Shown here one piece after another: positions 647 through 9,684 of a stretch of DNA of 64,000 bases (position 1 is its first letter; the number at the start of each line of letters is the position of its first letter). The position numbers and the translations under genes were made by a program. The notes under the pieces are model-generated. The model saw only the letters and a program-made list of their open reading frames with translations, ran no database searches and was not told the DNA's origin. Source of the DNA: Halorubrum sp. 2020YC2 (GTDB lineage: Archaea; Halobacteriota; Halobacteria; Halobacteriales; Haloferacaceae); NCBI RefSeq assembly GCF_018623055.1, contig NZ_CP076019.1, positions 2,790,001 to 2,854,000 on the forward strand, written 5' to 3'.

Positions 647-782
647 CCACGGCCGCGAGAGCTCGACTCGCCGCCCGGCGCCGCCTCCCGCCGCCCGAGG
701 TGTGACGTTTTTATGCGCCCGCGGCGAACCGAGCGACAGATGGACCGAGCACGCACGCCCGCCCCGGCGCGAGGTGGTGTCG

Positions 783-1958
783 GTGGGCGCTGACGGCGGC
801 TCCGCCCCCGAGTCGGACGCCACGAGCGACGACGCCGACGCGCCGGTCGTCGCCGGCTTCTTCTCCGGCTGCGGCGGCCTCGACTTGGGCTTCGAGCGGG
901 CCGGCTTCGACGTGGCCCTCGGGAGCGACCAGTGGGAGCCGGCCGCGGAGACGTACCGCCGCAACTTCTCGGACGTGGAGTTCATCGAGGAGGATGTCCG
1001 CGGGCTCGACGCCCCGGCGATCCGCGAGACCGTCGAGCGCGCCGGCTACGAACCCGACGGGATCGACGTGGTGATCGGCGGCCCGCCGTGTCAGGGGTTC
1101 AGCCGGCTCAACAACGAGCAGATCGAGCTGGACGAGATGGAGAAGGACCGGCGGAACACCCTCTTCGAGGAGTTCCTCCGGGTCGTCTCCGTCCTCGAAC
1201 CGCAGCTGGTGTTGATGGAGAACGTCCGCGACCTGATCAACCGGCAGACCAGCGACGACCGGTACGTGAAAGACCTCATCGTCGACGAGTTCGCGGCCCA
1301 CGGCTACAAGTGCGAGTACCGCGTGCTGGAGGCCGAGCAGTACGGCGTTCCCCAGAAGCGCCGCCGGATCTTCTTCGTGGGGACCGACCGCGACGTGCCG
1401 ATCCGCTTCCCCGAGCCGACGACCCCGGAGGGGAACTGGCGAACCGCGGGCGAGGCGCTCGCGGACGCGAGCGACGACCTCCCGAACATGAGGTACGCGA
1501 ACACCGGAGAGAAGACGCTCGAACGCATCCGGCACGTCCCGCCTGGCGGCTACTACCGAGACCTCCCGGACCGCCTGAAGACGAAAAAGTACCAGTGCGA
1601 CTGCGAGGACACCGACACCTGCCCCCACGAGCCGGAAATAGTCAAGCGGTACGGGACGTACCTCCGCCGGCTTGACCCCGACGAGCCCTCGCTAACGGTG
1701 AGCACGAACGTCTTCATCCACCCGACCGAGGACCGCTACCTCACCCCCCGCGAGATGGCACGGCTCCAGACGTTCCCGGACGAGTTCGCGTTCGAGGGGA
1801 CGAAGACCGACGTGATGAAACAGATCGGCAACGCGGTCCCGGTCCGACTCGGCGAGGAATTGGCGAACCAACTCCGGGAGTACTTCCCCGAGATCCGGGA
1901 CGCGCCCCCCGCCGACCCCGACGTGTACGAACAGCAGTCGCTTACGGATCTGGCCTGA
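783..1958 (+). CDS. DNA (cytosine-5-)-methyltransferase, host-like composition
   Basis: Transfers a methyl group from SAM to C5 of cytosine in DNA. The C5-methylase motifs appear in order: FSGCGGLDLGF (motif I, SAM binding), GGPPCQGFS (motif IV, catalytic Cys), MENVRD (motif VI), YGVPQKRRRIFF (motif VIII) and QIGNAVPV (motif X). The start is uncertain. The reading frame is open back to a GTG at 702, but a TATA-like GTTTTTAT sits at 707-714. I prefer GTG 783, which follows a GAGGTGG at 771-777; GTG 774 or 777 are alternatives. Base composition matches the host, unlike the second methylase at 2208. It may be a solitary methylase or an older partner of the neighbouring island. The recognition site cannot be read from the sequence. 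Confidence 0.9.
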   Translation: MGADGGSAPESDATSDDADAPVVAGFFSGCGGLDLGFERAGFDVALGSDQWEPAAETYRRNFSDVEFIEEDVRGLDAPAIRETVERAGYEPDGIDVVIGGPPCQGFSRLNNEQIELDEMEKDRRNTLFEEFLRVVSVLEPQLVLMENVRDLINRQTSDDRYVKDLIVDEFAAHGYKCEYRVLEAEQYGVPQKRRRIFFVGTDRDVPIRFPEPTTPEGNWRTAGEALADASDDLPNMRYANTGEKTLERIRHVPPGGYYRDLPDRLKTKKYQCDCEDTDTCPHEPEIVKRYGTYLRRLDPDEPSLTVSTNVFIHPTEDRYLTPREMARLQTFPDEFAFEGTKTDVMKQIGNAVPVRLGEELANQLREYFPEIRDAPPADPDVYEQQSLTDLA

Positions 1959-2207: not shown

Positions 2208-4043
2208 ATGTCTGACGTTTGGGATCCCGAATCCGAGATCGAGGAAAACCGTCATAACTGGTCGGGTGAGCCGAAGCACTTCGAACCCGTAGACGCCGCA
2301 CAACGAGACGAAAGCGAGCCTAAAGCTATCGACCTCTTTTGCGGTCCCGGCGGGATCTCTGCCGGACTGGAGTGGGCGGGTTTTGAACCCGTTCTCGGTG
2401 TGGACATTCACGAGCCTTCAGTCGAGACATACCGGCGGAACCACCCCGGCGCACACGCTATTCTCGGAGATATCCGGCGGATCAACAAGCGGAACGATGA
2501 CGATCGGGATATCTTCGAGGTCATCGAAAGCAATAGTTCGGTTGAGTCAACGCTGCTCGCGGAAGTCGCAGAAGAGGCGCTCGCCGGCGACGAGCTCAGC
2601 CTACTCACGGCGGGAATCCCCTGTCAAGGGTTCTCGATCGCCAACCGAAAGCAGCACGACGAGGACGAGAGGAACTATCTCTTTGAGGAATTCATCCGCG
2701 GTGTCCGACTGCTAAATCCGAAGCATATCCTCATCGAAAACGTCTCAACGATGAAATCCGCCGACGACGGTGGATTTGTCGACGCTATCGAGGAGTGTCT
2801 CGATATACTCGGATACAGCGTCGACCATCGAATTCTCAACGCCGCTGATTTCGGGGTTCCACAGAAGCGTCGCCGTCTCTTTTTCCTCGGGACACGAACA
2901 GATGCGCCTCTTATATGGCCCGAACCGACACACGAGGGTACCCCGCGGTCGACCGAGGACGCGCTTGCGGACCTTCCGCCGCTCGACGCCGACGAGGAGT
3001 CCGCCACTTACGATCGGGAGGGCAATCCCACGGAGTTCCAGCGCCTCATGCGGGAGGGAGTGAAATCCGAGGACGACCTCTGGAACCACAAAGCGCCGAA
3101 CCACCGTCAGACGACTATCGATAGGGTCAAAGAGACGGACCCGGGAGAGCCAATGTACGATCGCTTTAGACAGCGAATACGGCTCCACCCGGATGAGCCC
3201 GGGCCCACAATCATCGCAGGTGGAATTCGCCCGCAGTTCCAATACGGACACTTTTCTCAATCTCGTGGACTGTCCGTCCGAGAGCGGGCTCGGCTACAGT
3301 CGTTCCCCGACCAGTTTAAATTCGAGGGCGGAACCGTCCAAGGACGGGTTCAGACAGGGATGGCCGTCCCCCCACTCCTCGCGAAGCATATCGGTGAAGC
3401 GATCCGAACGTCTCAGGATGCCGAACTGTTCGTTCGCACCGTCCTCGATGAGTACGGGGACAAGACCGCTTCCCGCCCGTGGAGGAGCACGGATTCGACC
3501 CCATACGAGGTTCTCGTCGGAGAGATACTCGAGAGGGACACTCCGTCTGAAACGGTAGAAGCCGTGTTCTCGAAGTTCATCGAAAAATATCCGGACGAAA
3601 GGTCGCTCACGGAGGCGGATGTCAGTCAAGTCACGGACCTTCTAGCGGAGTTCGGCGTCGACGGAACGGTCGCCCGGAATCTCCGAGATATCATGAGCCA
3701 AGTGATGTTCTCGGGGGTTCCCGAAAGCGAAGGAGAACTCACTAAATTACCCCATATCGACCGAGCTATCGCCTATACGATCCTCTGTTTCGGTCACGGG
3801 AAGCGCTGTCCAGCCGTTGACGAGAACGTCACACGCATCTACGAGCGGTTCTTTGACATTTCCGTTAGCGATCCCTTCCAAGAAGACGACCATCTCTGGG
3901 ACTTCGCGAGAGCGATACTTCCGGAAGACGACTATCTGCGATACAACCGGGCGGTCATCGAGTTCGCGTCGGACTACTGCGTAGACGATTCCCTCGACTC
4001 TACCGGCGGTCGGGTCTCCTCACTATCACACCTCCTCGGCTGA
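2208..4043 (+). CDS. C5 DNA methyltransferase fused to HhH-GPD (EndoIII/MutY-like) glycosylase domain
   Basis: Residues about 38-400 form a C5-cytosine methyltransferase: IDLFCGPGG (motif I, about 41-49), GIPCQGFS (motif IV, catalytic Cys139), LIENVS (motif VI), FGVPQKRRRLFFLG (motif VIII), RARLQSFPDQF (motif IX) and TGMAVPP (motif X, with Met where Asn is usual). Residues about 420-590 then look like a HhH-GPD base-excision glycosylase: LPHIDRAIAY matches the hairpin region and AVDENV keeps the catalytic Asp. The lysine of bifunctional EndoIII is replaced by Ala, and the four-Cys iron-sulphur loop is missing, so any activity would be monofunctional. Inference: the second domain repairs the T:G mismatches that arise when the enzyme's own 5-methylcytosine deaminates. 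It begins the operon with the two nuclease-like genes. Low GC and relaxed codon use suggest transfer. Confidence 0.88.
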   Translation: MSDVWDPESEIEENRHNWSGEPKHFEPVDAAQRDESEPKAIDLFCGPGGISAGLEWAGFEPVLGVDIHEPSVETYRRNHPGAHAILGDIRRINKRNDDDRDIFEVIESNSSVESTLLAEVAEEALAGDELSLLTAGIPCQGFSIANRKQHDEDERNYLFEEFIRGVRLLNPKHILIENVSTMKSADDGGFVDAIEECLDILGYSVDHRILNAADFGVPQKRRRLFFLGTRTDAPLIWPEPTHEGTPRSTEDALADLPPLDADEESATYDREGNPTEFQRLMREGVKSEDDLWNHKAPNHRQTTIDRVKETDPGEPMYDRFRQRIRLHPDEPGPTIIAGGIRPQFQYGHFSQSRGLSVRERARLQSFPDQFKFEGGTVQGRVQTGMAVPPLLAKHIGEAIRTSQDAELFVRTVLDEYGDKTASRPWRSTDSTPYEVLVGEILERDTPSETVEAVFSKFIEKYPDERSLTEADVSQVTDLLAEFGVDGTVARNLRDIMSQVMFSGVPESEGELTKLPHIDRAIAYTILCFGHGKRCPAVDENVTRIYERFFDISVSDPFQEDDHLWDFARAILPEDDYLRYNRAVIEFASDYCVDDSLDSTGGRVSSLSHLLG

Positions 4044-4094: not shown

Positions 4095-5318
4095 ATGTTC
4101 CGGATCTGGAACGACAGCGAGCGCTTTGCGAGATATATGATCGAGAACACCGCCCTCTCGAATCACAAACCTGACGTCAGTACCCAACACCTTCCAAAAA
4201 GTGATGCTGGTGACCCAAAGGAGTTCCATCGGGTTCCGGATCACATCAAGGAGATCCTCTATCTAGACTCGCCGGATCTCATCGTCGAGGCCAACGGAGA
4301 GCCTCTGTTCACCGTCGAAATTTCGGAGGAAGCAGGGACCGGACATAACGCGTTCCAGCGGTTTCCCCGGATCGCCGCGTCCGTGGAGGCCTCCGTTCCA
4401 GCGCTTTACATCTACCCCGAAGCGACGTTCATCACGAGGAAAAACAGTCAAGACTGGGACGAACTGAACCCTCTTATCTTCCGAGCGTTGGAAAGCGCGA
4501 TGCAGATTCACGAGGTGCCCGCGCTTCTATACTACTATCCGTCTGACTTCGATGGAACGAGCGATCCGCCGGGTCACCGCTCGTCTCAAAACGGACTCCG
4601 GTACGACGACGAAATCAACGGGCAACCGGATCGCGACGACGCCGAGATGCAGTCCATGTTCGACGTCGTGGACACGTTCATCGAACGGGCGACCGGGTCG
4701 ACGGAGTTGGACTTCATAAAGAACCGGGCCGTCAGAGAGCGTCGGAACTGGATGCAAAACCAGTTTGCCGACAAAGAGGGCCCGGGCAAAACGTGGTCTC
4801 CCTTGACGAGCGTGAAGACGGTCCCGACCGAGAAAGTGGTTGACTACCTGGAGGAGGCCAATCCCACTTGCCGGCCCGAACTGCTGACGCGAAGGGACGA
4901 GACCGTCATCTACTCGGCCAACGCGAAAATTCGCGGAGACCCCTACCCCGGTGCGCTGGCGGCGATCGACTATCTGAAGGCTCGTATCGGTGAATCGTAC
5001 CGTGACCGCGATCGGAATCTCGTTTTCTGTTGGGGAGAAGTCTCGCAGACCGAGAGTGGTGAACTCGACGTAACAGCGCGGAATGAGTCCGGGTCATCCG
5101 TCGAGGCGTTTGTCGAGGAGGCCAACAAAGTCGCAAACGTCAACAGGCGCCTGCTCCTCGGAAAGGACTACTCGGAACTGAAAGACAGCGAGATCCCTCG
5201 GTACTATATGCAGGTCCGACACGGCACACGGTTCACACAGCGAAAACTCGTCCGCTGCTACGCGTACTTCGCGGACGCAATCCTCTTTCACGACGGTGCC
5301 CTCTGGCGGGAAGGGTAA
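4095..5318 (+). CDS. Putative restriction endonuclease or partner subunit (unrecognised family)
   Basis: I do not recognise this 407-aa protein by family. It lies 51 nt after the methylase-glycosylase gene and ends directly before the ATG of a PD-(D/E)XK gene, in the same AT-richer DNA, so a restriction role is the best inference. A nuclease-like patch is visible near residues 59-80: SPDLIVEA, then about 8 residues on, FTVEISEEAGTG. This resembles a PD-(D/E)XK core but lacks the usual lysine after the Glu. It has no signal peptide or membrane segments. It could be the DNA-recognition subunit, with the 5319 gene supplying cutting, or a divergent type II enzyme. A search with HHpred would be needed to name it. 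Confidence 0.6.
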   Translation: MFRIWNDSERFARYMIENTALSNHKPDVSTQHLPKSDAGDPKEFHRVPDHIKEILYLDSPDLIVEANGEPLFTVEISEEAGTGHNAFQRFPRIAASVEASVPALYIYPEATFITRKNSQDWDELNPLIFRALESAMQIHEVPALLYYYPSDFDGTSDPPGHRSSQNGLRYDDEINGQPDRDDAEMQSMFDVVDTFIERATGSTELDFIKNRAVRERRNWMQNQFADKEGPGKTWSPLTSVKTVPTEKVVDYLEEANPTCRPELLTRRDETVIYSANAKIRGDPYPGALAAIDYLKARIGESYRDRDRNLVFCWGEVSQTESGELDVTARNESGSSVEAFVEEANKVANVNRRLLLGKDYSELKDSEIPRYYMQVRHGTRFTQRKLVRCYAYFADAILFHDGALWREG

Positions 5319-5747
5319 ATGAACGAAGAGCAGGTCACCGAAGCGGTCGAGGAGTACCTCGAAAGAGAGGGATGGACGATGTTCGCGGTCGACTACCCGA
5401 CAAGCGGCTCCGGGTTACGCCTCCATCCCAATGACAGGGAAGCCGGTACCAAACACTCCGGTTCCATCGTCCCCGACATCGTCGCTCACCGAGACGGAAC
5501 TGTCCTCATCGTCGAGTGTAAGCCCCACTTCGATCGACACGACGCACGGAAACTCGACGAGGTCGCTGAGGGCAGATACTCCGACAGCCTCGAACGACGC
5601 GTCTATTCGACGGACGTACGCGAGGTCGCCACCGCGCTTGCGTTTCCGAAGAGCGACGAGTCCTCCGTCGAACCGGAGCTACTCAGTCAGATCGACTCTC
5701 TCCTTCTCGTGGGCGACGACTCTCTGGTTTTCGAGAAAGAGGCGTAG
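5319..5747 (+). CDS. Small PD-(D/E)XK nuclease-like protein
   Basis: A 142-aa protein with a textbook PD-(D/E)XK core: IVPDIVAHRDG (Asp about residue 52), then VLIVECK (Glu and Lys about residues 66-68), followed by a helical segment. This fold covers many restriction and repair nucleases. The ATG is at the base after the stop of the 4095 gene, so the two are probably made together and may form one enzyme. The order methylase, large protein, small nuclease suggests a type II or type IV-like restriction module. No DNA-recognition domain is visible in this small protein, which supports a two-subunit reading. It ends the AT-richer island, about 165 nt before tRNA-Pro. Confidence 0.7.
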   Translation: MNEEQVTEAVEEYLEREGWTMFAVDYPTSGSGLRLHPNDREAGTKHSGSIVPDIVAHRDGTVLIVECKPHFDRHDARKLDEVAEGRYSDSLERRVYSTDVREVATALAFPKSDESSVEPELLSQIDSLLLVGDDSLVFEKEA

Positions 5748-5798: not shown

Positions 5799-5909
5799 AT
5801 GGGACCGCCCGGATTCGAACCCCAGTCGCTCCGCTCGCGTCGCTCGCTCCGCTCCCTGCTTCGAATCCGCTCCACGGCTGCGGCGCTCGCGGAGTTGCTT
5901 GCGCCGCAG
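5799..5909. repeat. tRNA-Pro 3'-end copy and hairpin pair downstream of the tRNA
   Basis: Bases 5799-5821 repeat exactly the last 23 bases of tRNA-Pro and its edge (5912-5934). GGATTCGAA (5811-5819) is then matched by its inverted copy at 5860-5868, giving a stem around a loop rich in CGCTC units. A second 9-bp perfect inverted repeat follows (5878-5886 with 5901-5909). A direct repeat of a tRNA 3' end next to imported genes is the usual mark of site-specific integration, but the added inverted copy is not explained by that. The same arrangement lies beside tRNA-Arg and tRNA-Asp. Confidence 0.75.
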
Positions 5910-5912
5910 AAA

Positions 5913-5983
5913 TGGGACCGCCCGGATTCGAACCGGGGTCACGGGCACCCAAGGCCCGGAGTATACCACTAACCCACGGTCCC
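5913..5983 (-). tRNA. tRNA-Pro (UGG)
   Basis: Read on the minus strand, the 71-base sequence folds as a tRNA. The acceptor arms are GGGACCG and CGGTCCC with discriminator A, and the T arm is CCGGTTCGAATCCGG. The anticodon stem CGGGC/GCCCG encloses the loop CTTGGGT, giving anticodon UGG (codon CCA, proline). CCA is not encoded. There is no intron. The 3' end faces the restriction-modification island. Confidence 0.93.
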
Positions 5984-8880: not shown

Positions 8881-9630
8881 TCACTCCGTCGGCGTCGGGT
8901 CGAGCGCGACGTGGTCGAACCCGCGGTCAGCGAGCCGCTCCGCGGCCCGGTCGGTGACCGAGGGCGCGACGAGTATCCCGCGGACGGCCGGCGGGTCGCC
9001 GGAGTCGCTCCCGCCGTCGACCCCCAGTTCCTCTCCGAGCGCCCGCACGTACCGGGCGAGCTGCCCGACCGCGTCCGGGCCGACCCGGCGGCGTTTCAGC
9101 TCGACGACGACCGGCGTCCCCTCGTCGTCGACGCCGAAGACGTCCATCGGACCGGCGCTGGAGGAGCGCTCGGTCTCTCTCGGCTCGAACCCGGGTTCGA
9201 CGAGGTCGGGACGTTCCAAGATTCGGGTTCGGAGGTCCTCCTCGCTGCCGTGGAGTTCGAGGTCTCGGCCGCCCGTCACGGCCATCGCTGAGAGCTGGTG
9301 AACGTCGGAAAAGCGGACCGTCAGCGTCTCGTCGGGGTTATCCCGGGTCGAGACCACGCGGAGCCGCCCCTCGCGGACCGCGGCGCGGTGTTGCGACCCC
9401 GGCGGCTGCCAGTTGACCGGCTGGCGCCCCTCGTCGGTGTGGACGAGGGCGGCGCCGTCGGGCTTCAACACCAGCAGGCGGTCGCCCGCGCCGAGGTCCG
9501 AGGCGGCCCGTCCCTCGTAGGTGACCGTACAGCGGCCGAAGGCGCTGACGAGGTCGCCGCGCTCGAAGGCGTCCTCCAGCTCCCAGAGGGCCTCGCGGTG
9601 GCTCGGGTCGTGGACGCTCGTGACTGTCAC
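8881..9630 (-). CDS. nucS: Endonuclease NucS
   Basis: Archaeal/actinobacterial RecB-fold nuclease that cuts branched or mismatched DNA and is linked to mismatch repair through the sliding clamp. The C-terminal half has the PD-(D/E)XK core: [12 protein letters not shown], then [11 protein letters not shown] (catalytic Glu and Lys), followed by AVGQLARYV. The N-terminal half is the beta-rich DNA-binding and dimerisation domain. GTG 9630 gives [10 protein letters not shown] and 249 aa; an upstream TTG (9657) would add nine basic residues and is less likely. Notably the window also holds MutS (39435). The extreme C-terminus does not show an obvious PCNA-interacting motif. Confidence 0.88.
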
Positions 9631-9684
9631 TAACCGTCGTAAGCGCCGGCGGCTCAAAAAGGACGCGAGCCGAGGAGTCCGGTC

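What the first reader, a model, noticed from the sequence alone, without database searches (positions are those of the whole stretch)
2208..4043. C5 methyltransferase fused to a DNA-glycosylase-like domain: a self-repairing modification enzyme?
5-methylcytosine deaminates to T, giving T:G mismatches. Some restriction-modification systems carry a separate repair gene (Vsr in enteric bacteria; the Mig.Mth T:G glycosylase beside a methylase in Methanothermobacter). Here the methylase motifs (Cys139) are followed in one 611-aa protein by a HhH-GPD domain that keeps the catalytic Asp (AVDENV) but lacks the EndoIII Lys and the iron-sulphur Cys loop. Mig.Mth also lacks that Lys. The fusion would deliver repair to the very sites being methylated.
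Basis: partly seen in the sequence, partly recalled or inferred. Interest (0 to 1): 0.8.

Follow-up and report, generated by a model that had tools for sequence, protein, structure and literature searches.

The report
DNA methylase fused to eroding repair domain
A DNA-methylating enzyme of a salt-loving archaeon carries, on the same chain, a domain descended from the repair enzymes that fix the mutations methylation causes, but in this copy the repair site is so altered that it may no longer do that job.

Summary
Window 2208-4043 (+) encodes one 611-aa protein: an intact C5-cytosine methyltransferase (39-399) joined to a HhH-GPD domain (about 404-611) with a MutY/Mig fold. The same fusion occurs in three other Haloferacaceae genomes (4 of 391 haloarchaeal genomes searched), always followed by a nuclease gene and a Hjc-like nuclease gene: a restriction-modification cassette. 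The domain descends from Mig-type T:G glycosylases. In trees the fused domains form one clade next to haloarchaeal stand-alone Mig-like enzymes, many of them beside C5 methylases. The closest unfused methylase found, on a Thermus plasmid, has a Mig-like ORF directly downstream.
The 'self-repairing enzyme' reading is only partly supported. Stand-alone relatives keep Tyr126, Leu45, HhH Gly124, Asn146, Asp191 and four Fe-S cysteines almost without exception. This copy keeps Asp538 and Asn540 but has Ala520, Glu442, Asp518, Glu585, Arg581 and one cysteine. The hydrophobic core is conserved (43 of 46 positions). I read it as a folded but remodelled glycosylase domain, probably not a normal T:G glycosylase; the relative in G099 (L019), with Tyr and all cysteines, is the better candidate for self-repair. 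No assay exists, and weak or altered activity is not excluded.

The parts
2208..4043 (+). Fusion gene: C5-cytosine DNA methyltransferase plus C-terminal HhH-GPD (Mig-like) domain, 611 aa
2322..3404 (+). Methyltransferase part, residues 39-399; PCQ catalytic Cys139 at 2622-2624; motifs FxGxG, PCQ, ENV, QxRxR read directly from the sequence (motif names recalled)
   Evidence: Pfam PF00145 1e-63; codon position
3417..4040 (+). HhH-GPD domain, residues 404-611, directly after the methylase with almost no linker
   Evidence: Pfam PF00730, PDB hits, AF2 model and fold match
3819..3821 (+). Asp538, equivalent of catalytic Asp144 of Mig.Mth / Asp138 of E. coli MutY
3765..3767 (+). Ala520 at the EndoIII Lys120 / Mig Tyr126 position; HhH hairpin reads LPHIDR (His516, Asp518 in place of the Gly residues)
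3978..3980 (+). Cys591, the only remaining Fe-S ligand of four
4095..5318 (+). Putative restriction endonuclease, 407 aa (weak hit to a PADLOC 'Type II nicking endonuclease' model; PD..ExS-like motif)
   Evidence: (7.9e-7); conserved partner in 8 of 391 genomes
5319..5747 (+). Small Hjc/AHJR-like PD-ExK nuclease, 142 aa, starts on the base after the previous stop
   Evidence: (Hjc 2.2e-4); conserved with the RE gene

Best explanation
The gene is the modification enzyme of a mobile restriction-modification cassette in which an intact C5 methyltransferase has captured a Mig-type T:G glycosylase gene that once lay directly downstream of it. The methyltransferase half marks the host's sites (inferred). 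The C-terminal half still folds as a HhH-GPD domain, but its base pocket, HhH hairpin and Fe-S loop have been remodelled since the fusion, one lineage (L019) keeping most of the ancestral set. I think the most likely state of this copy is a folded DNA-contacting appendage of the methylase with lost, weak or altered glycosylase activity, while the ancestral fusion and perhaps the L019 protein repaired T:G at the enzyme's own sites. Shown here: the fusion, the predicted fold, the ancestry, the cassette, the residue changes, the conserved core. Inferred: the loss of normal T:G activity and the present role in DNA binding or stability.
For: Fusion in four genera with the same two downstream genes. 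Fused domains are one clade (100/99), grouped with haloarchaeal stand-alone Mig-like enzymes (97/79) and away from MutY and EndoIII. Sister of the fused methylases is a Thermus plasmid methylase (SH-aLRT 100) followed by a Mig-like ORF in another frame. Residue table: window departs at L45, A50, G122, G124, Y126, L187, D191 and three Cys; stand-alones are nearly invariant at L45, G124, Y126, D191 and the Cys. 14 of 24 conserved columns kept against 22 of 24 in MutY. At 68-78% methylase identity the fused domains are 37-50% identical, while haloarchaeal stand-alone pairs at 72-79% methylase identity are 54-62% identical. Core kept: 43 of 46 hydrophobic columns; 20 of 23 changed ones still hydrophobic, p 2e-8. 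In PMC2714593 (passages read) the loss of T activity in TthMutY Y112S is taken to support importance of Mig Tyr126.
Against: Asp538, Asn540 and Glu439 are kept. HhH glycosylases without the cluster exist: the PDB title of 8uuc is a 'clusterless MutYX', and hMBD4, a T:G enzyme, lacks the cluster (recalled). The excess of loss at catalytic over other equally conserved columns is modest (pooled p 0.010, 0.023 and 0.057 at three thresholds, rows not independent). No assay, no dN/dS (relatives too far apart), and the full-length model failed.
Confidence: 0.58

Rival explanations
1. Self-repairing methylase: the fused domain is an active T:G (and U:G) glycosylase that the methylase half delivers to its own deaminated sites.
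For: Mig-like ancestry and fold; catalytic Asp kept in 4 of 4 fusions; Mig-like genes sit next to C5 methylases in 21 of 27 archaeal loci; the L019 fusion keeps Tyr, Asn, Asp and all four Cys; no stand-alone Mig-like gene seen among the other 5 HhH-GPD matches of the window's genome: L001, L002 and L004 fall with EndoIII or MutY, L003 and L005 gave no match to the query domain.
Against: Window copy has Ala for Tyr126, Glu for Leu45, Arg for Leu187, Asp for HhH Gly124, Glu for Asp191 and no Fe-S loop. Four sister restriction cassettes do without any glycosylase in the stretches fetched.
Confidence: 0.27
2. Altered-specificity glycosylase: the pocket was rebuilt (Ala520 plus Arg581) for another base, such as a modified pyrimidine on invading DNA or the methylase's own product.
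For: Ala at 126 and Arg at 187 (Mig numbering) occur together in the three fusions of one subclade and His122 in all four (tree); core conserved.
Against: No substrate hint in the sequence; the shared states may be inherited without selection; the same group varies at E42, L45, N146 and D191.
Confidence: 0.08
3. Decaying remnant: a once useful domain now drifting neutrally.
For: Long branches in the domain (window 0.75, L020 1.61, median 0.41) and Fe-S loss.
Against: Reading frame open in four genomes; changed core positions stay hydrophobic in 20 of 23 (window), 16 of 20 (L007), 14 of 17 (L019) and 24 of 29 (L020) cases.
Confidence: 0.07

Closest known systems
Mig.Mth (mig of plasmid pFV1, Methanothermobacter thermautotrophicus; PDB 1kea), T:G/U:G mismatch glycosylase
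   Same: HhH-GPD fold, no C-terminal MutY domain, catalytic Asp, genetic association with a C5 methylase and a restriction enzyme.
   Different: Mig is a separate gene about 1.4 kb from its methylase on the other strand; it has Tyr126, Ala50, Leu187 and a complete Fe-S loop, which the window protein lacks.
Thermus plasmid pairs: pTthSNM7-6d (L008), pAA1-1c (L085), pPS18 (L086)
   Same: C5 methylase followed on the same strand by a Mig-like glycosylase ORF, overlapping by 28 to 61 bases as open frames; L008 methylase is the nearest unfused relative in the tree.
   Different: Two separate genes; glycosylase has intact Tyr, Asp and Cys residues.
Haloarchaeal stand-alone Mig-like genes (L009, L010, L037-L039, L052, L053, L087)
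   Same: Nearest relatives of the fused domain in the tree.
   Different: Not fused; partner methylases are only distantly related to the fused one.
Vsr (V.) nucleases with Dcm-type methylases
   Same: Same biological problem, T:G mismatch at 5mC sites (recalled).
   Different: Unrelated nick-based nuclease fold, separate protein (recalled).
MBD4
   Same: Glycosylase domain of HhH-GPD fold tied on one chain to a domain that finds methylated sites (recalled; PMC9266487 passages); fold match Z 12.9.
   Different: Carries a methyl-CpG reader, not a methylase; eukaryotic.

Membership tests
C5-cytosine DNA methyltransferase (PF00145) | Family profile over cut-off with PCQ, ENV and QxRxR motifs | tested here: met
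   1e-63, 216 bits against 22; motifs read, Cys139 located
HhH-GPD superfamily | Profile over cut-off and fold | tested here: met
   31.0 bits against 26.2; AF2 pLDDT 76.7 and Foldseek/VIA matches to MutY, Mig, EndoIII
Mig-type T:G glycosylase | Common descent with Mig-like enzymes rather than MutY | tested here: met
   Tree, 97/79 with haloarchaeal Mig-like rows and MutY elsewhere; position of Mig.Mth itself is unresolved in that tree
Mig-type T:G glycosylase | Catalytic Asp (D144) | tested here: met
   Asp538
Mig-type T:G glycosylase | Tyr126 | tested here: not met
   Ala520; Tyr in all 42 stand-alone Mig-like rows counted
Mig-type T:G glycosylase | Ala50 and Leu187 pocket residues | tested here: not met
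   Ser447 and Arg581; role of the pair from PMC2714593, passages read
Mig-type T:G glycosylase | Four-cysteine Fe-S loop | tested here: not met
   Only Cys591 left
Mig-type T:G glycosylase | Excision of T or U opposite G | not testable with these tools
   No assay
MutY adenine glycosylase | Val45 and Gln182, C-terminal 8-oxoG domain | tested here: not met
   Ser447, Arg581; protein ends at the HhH-GPD domain
Endonuclease III | Catalytic Lys120 | tested here: not met
   Ala520
Type II restriction-modification system | Methylase linked to a nuclease gene | tested here: met
   Same nuclease pair next to a C5 methylase in 8 of 8 genomes with the RE family
Type II restriction-modification system | Sequence-specific cleavage blocked by the methylation | not testable with these tools
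   No assay; site unknown

The most novel reading that the evidence does not exclude
A single enzyme that writes 5-methylcytosine at its site and, with a rebuilt glycosylase domain of new base preference, removes a base at the same site: a writer and excision editor in one chain.
Probability: 0.09. Interest if true: 0.85.

Novelty: new variant of a known kind. Interest (0 to 1): 0.52.

Why it matters
The cost of 5-methylcytosine is its deamination to T. Separate repair genes beside methylases are known (Vsr, Mig). Here the stages can be compared: distant genes (pFV1), overlapping neighbours (Thermus plasmids), fusion with a largely intact repair site (L019) and fusion with a remodelled one (window). 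That makes it testable whether linking repair to methylation pays, and why a fused repair domain is kept after its chemistry changes. If L019-type proteins are active, they are natural site-directed repair enzymes.

Tried and rejected
Considered and rejected: (1) sequencing or assembly artefact joining two genes: four genomes carry the fusion. (2) MutY or EndoIII identity: tree and residues disagree, although NCBIfam's best HhH model is mutY. (3) A two-methylase asymmetric system with the neighbour 702-1958: no second methylase beyond the fused one was found in the stretches of L007, L019 and L020, and its GC3 of 0.93 differs from 0.66-0.73 in the cassette. (4) Asp retention as proof of activity: about 19% by chance's rates.

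Led nowhere: viral scans gave two distant loci (L049, L050). The full-length structure model failed (pLDDT 37), so domain arrangement is unknown. The recognition site was not determined. dN/dS was not attempted because relatives are too divergent. Literature searches listed no paper, by title and start of abstract, on a methylase fused to a HhH-GPD glycosylase; passages of PMC6471742, PMC10609329, PMC12707154, PMC4081073, PMC9266487 and PMC8307549 were searched by term only. The library holds open-licence papers only, so 'not in print' is not claimed.

Full report
The observation. Pfam puts a C5 methyltransferase at residues 39-399 (1e-63) and HhH-GPD at 437-553 (3.5e-7, over its cut-off). NCBIfam gives dcm and, below its cut-off, mutY. 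Sequence comparison of residues 404-611 with the PDB gives MutY (1.1e-18) and Mig.Mth (1.8e-18) almost level. The window lies in a 3.06-Mb haloarchaeal genome; a 'same genus' genome, G006, has a contig of 101,378 bases, the length of the Halorubrum hochsteinianum plasmid found separately, so the genus is probably Halorubrum (inference).

How common the fusion is. Full-length searches found it in 4 of 391 genomes of the class and 4 of 392 of the order, and a search with the domain alone found the same four fusions among 11 matching genomes of 170 in the family: the window's G000, G039, G087 and G099. These sets overlap. They are four genera of one family. Two further matches (G219, G319) cover the methylase only. 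No fusion was seen in plasmid records: the best, Thermus pTthSNM7-6d, matches in two pieces because methylase and glycosylase are separate ORFs; of the 3,068 plasmid records matched, only the best 25 were listed.

The cassette. In all four fusions the gene is followed on the same strand by a nuclease gene (window 4095-5318) and a Hjc-like nuclease gene (5319-5747). The nuclease family was found in 8 of 391 genomes: the four fusions, plus G219, G319, G353 and G372, which have an unfused C5 methylase and no glycosylase in the 7.5 to 11.5 kb fetched. So the restriction cassette exists with and without the repair domain. Its third-position GC is 0.66-0.73 against 0.93-0.94 for the neighbouring methylase and helicase genes, which points to import. 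Seven of the eight cassettes lie 124 to 425 bases from a tRNA gene.

Ancestry of the domain. A stand-alone haloarchaeal relative (L009) has Mig.Mth as its best solved relative by far, 3.7e-41. In a tree of 54 HhH-GPD domains the four fused ones form a clade (100/99), placed with haloarchaeal stand-alone rows (97/79) and apart from MutY and EndoIII; deeper branches, including the place of Mig.Mth, are unresolved. In the methylase tree the fused enzymes are sister to the Thermus L008 methylase (SH-aLRT 100), and the next neighbours are the three tested methylases of the cassettes without a glycosylase (93) (quick search, no bootstrap; the broken G353 methylase was left out). Among the 27 loci that were fetched and are not MutY-like (28 loci L051-L078, less L075), 21 have a C5 methylase within the 1.5 kb held on either side; the MutY rows L075, L079, L080 have none. 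The other matches were not examined for this. Of the seven stand-alone genes, five have a C5 methylase in the stretch fetched around them and two (L035, L040) have none. In many the two genes are on the same strand and touch or overlap. A co-directional overlapping pair, as in Thermus, is the natural precursor of the fusion (inference).

State of the active site. Using Mig.Mth numbering, the 42 stand-alone Mig-like rows are nearly uniform at E42, L45, G124, Y126, D144, N146, D191 and the cysteines. The L053 row, truncated at its C-terminus, was left out of that count. The fusions differ: window E, E, D, A, D, N, E with one Cys; L007 H, H, D, A, D, A, D with three of the four ligand columns; L019 Q, L, E, Y, D, N, D with four; L020 E, L, T, A, D, R, A with four. 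Position 187 is Arg in window, L007 and L020 and Met in L019; position 122 is His in all four. Of 24 columns at least 90% identical in stand-alones, window keeps 14, L020 15, L007 17, L019 18; five MutY rows keep 22 each; ten haloarchaeal stand-alones tested by leave-one-out keep 24 of 24 or 24 of 25, and three distant ones (L008, L081, L085) 23 of 25, 21 of 24 and 21 of 24.

Not simple decay. Of 46 columns hydrophobic in at least 90% of stand-alones, window keeps 43, L007 42, L019 43, L020 41; of 23 changed ones in window 20 are still hydrophobic against 25% hydrophobic elsewhere in that row (the p of 2e-8 used 30%). The AF2 model of residues 397-611 (3 sequences, mean pLDDT 76.7, the last 18 residues and a loop under 50) matches Mig.Mth at TM 0.70 and Z 18.3, rmsd 3.6 over 202 residues. 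A clusterless MutY structure, 8uuc, scores Z 17.3, so loss of the cluster alone would not exclude activity. The statistical excess of loss at catalytic over equally conserved other columns is modest: 13 of 28 against 42 of 56 (p 0.010), 13 of 28 against 64 of 92 (0.023), 13 of 28 against 93 of 144 (0.057), with related rows.

What it does. The sequence shows an intact methylase and a domain predicted to fold, with a remodelled glycosylase site. Established knowledge of Mig and MutY says that the residue at the Lys/Ser/Tyr position and positions 45/50 and 182/187 shape base choice (PMC2714593, passages read; there, a Tyr-to-Ser change in a Thermus MutY removed its thymine activity). From this I infer that the window copy is unlikely to be a normal T:G glycosylase. 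The host has other base-repair enzymes (six HhH-GPD matches including this one, and three UDG-family matches, in the genome) and a NucS gene about 5 kb away, so repair need not depend on this domain.

Novelty. The parts are known and so is their neighbourhood; the one-chain form and its graded remodelling were not found in the papers searched (open-licence library only). I rate it a new variant of a known kind.

Noticed in passing
window 5800-5821 and 5913-5983: The cassette ends 166 bp from a tRNA-Pro gene whose 3' end is repeated exactly over about 22 bp at 5800-5821; 7 of 8 cassettes lie 124-425 bp from a tRNA gene (L020 has none in 12.5 kb). Looks like tRNA-targeted integration.
   Followed up: partly
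window 702-1958: A second C5 methylase directly upstream, about 35% identical, with native-like GC3 of 0.93, not part of the cassette in other genomes.
   Followed up: partly
L008 5035-5712 (Thermus pTthSNM7-6d): A Mig-like glycosylase ORF, not listed in PLSDB's (incomplete) gene table, directly after the annotated methylase, with intact Tyr, Asp and four Cys.
   Followed up: yes
window 4095-5318; L007 9023-9997: Two nuclease lineages only about 29% identical stand behind methylases that are 68% identical, which suggests partner swapping or fast nuclease divergence.
   Followed up: no
window 8881-9657: NucS/EndoMS mismatch endonuclease gene about 3-5 kb from the cassette, beside L10e ribosomal protein and a DEAD helicase; the helicase also neighbours the cassette in L007.
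   Followed up: no
L090 5433-6511 (G353): The methylase of one glycosylase-free cassette reads as two ORFs overlapping by 4 bases.
   Followed up: no
L053 1483-2043 (G008): A stand-alone Mig-like gene cut short by a TAG before its Fe-S loop, with Lys in place of Glu42.
   Followed up: no
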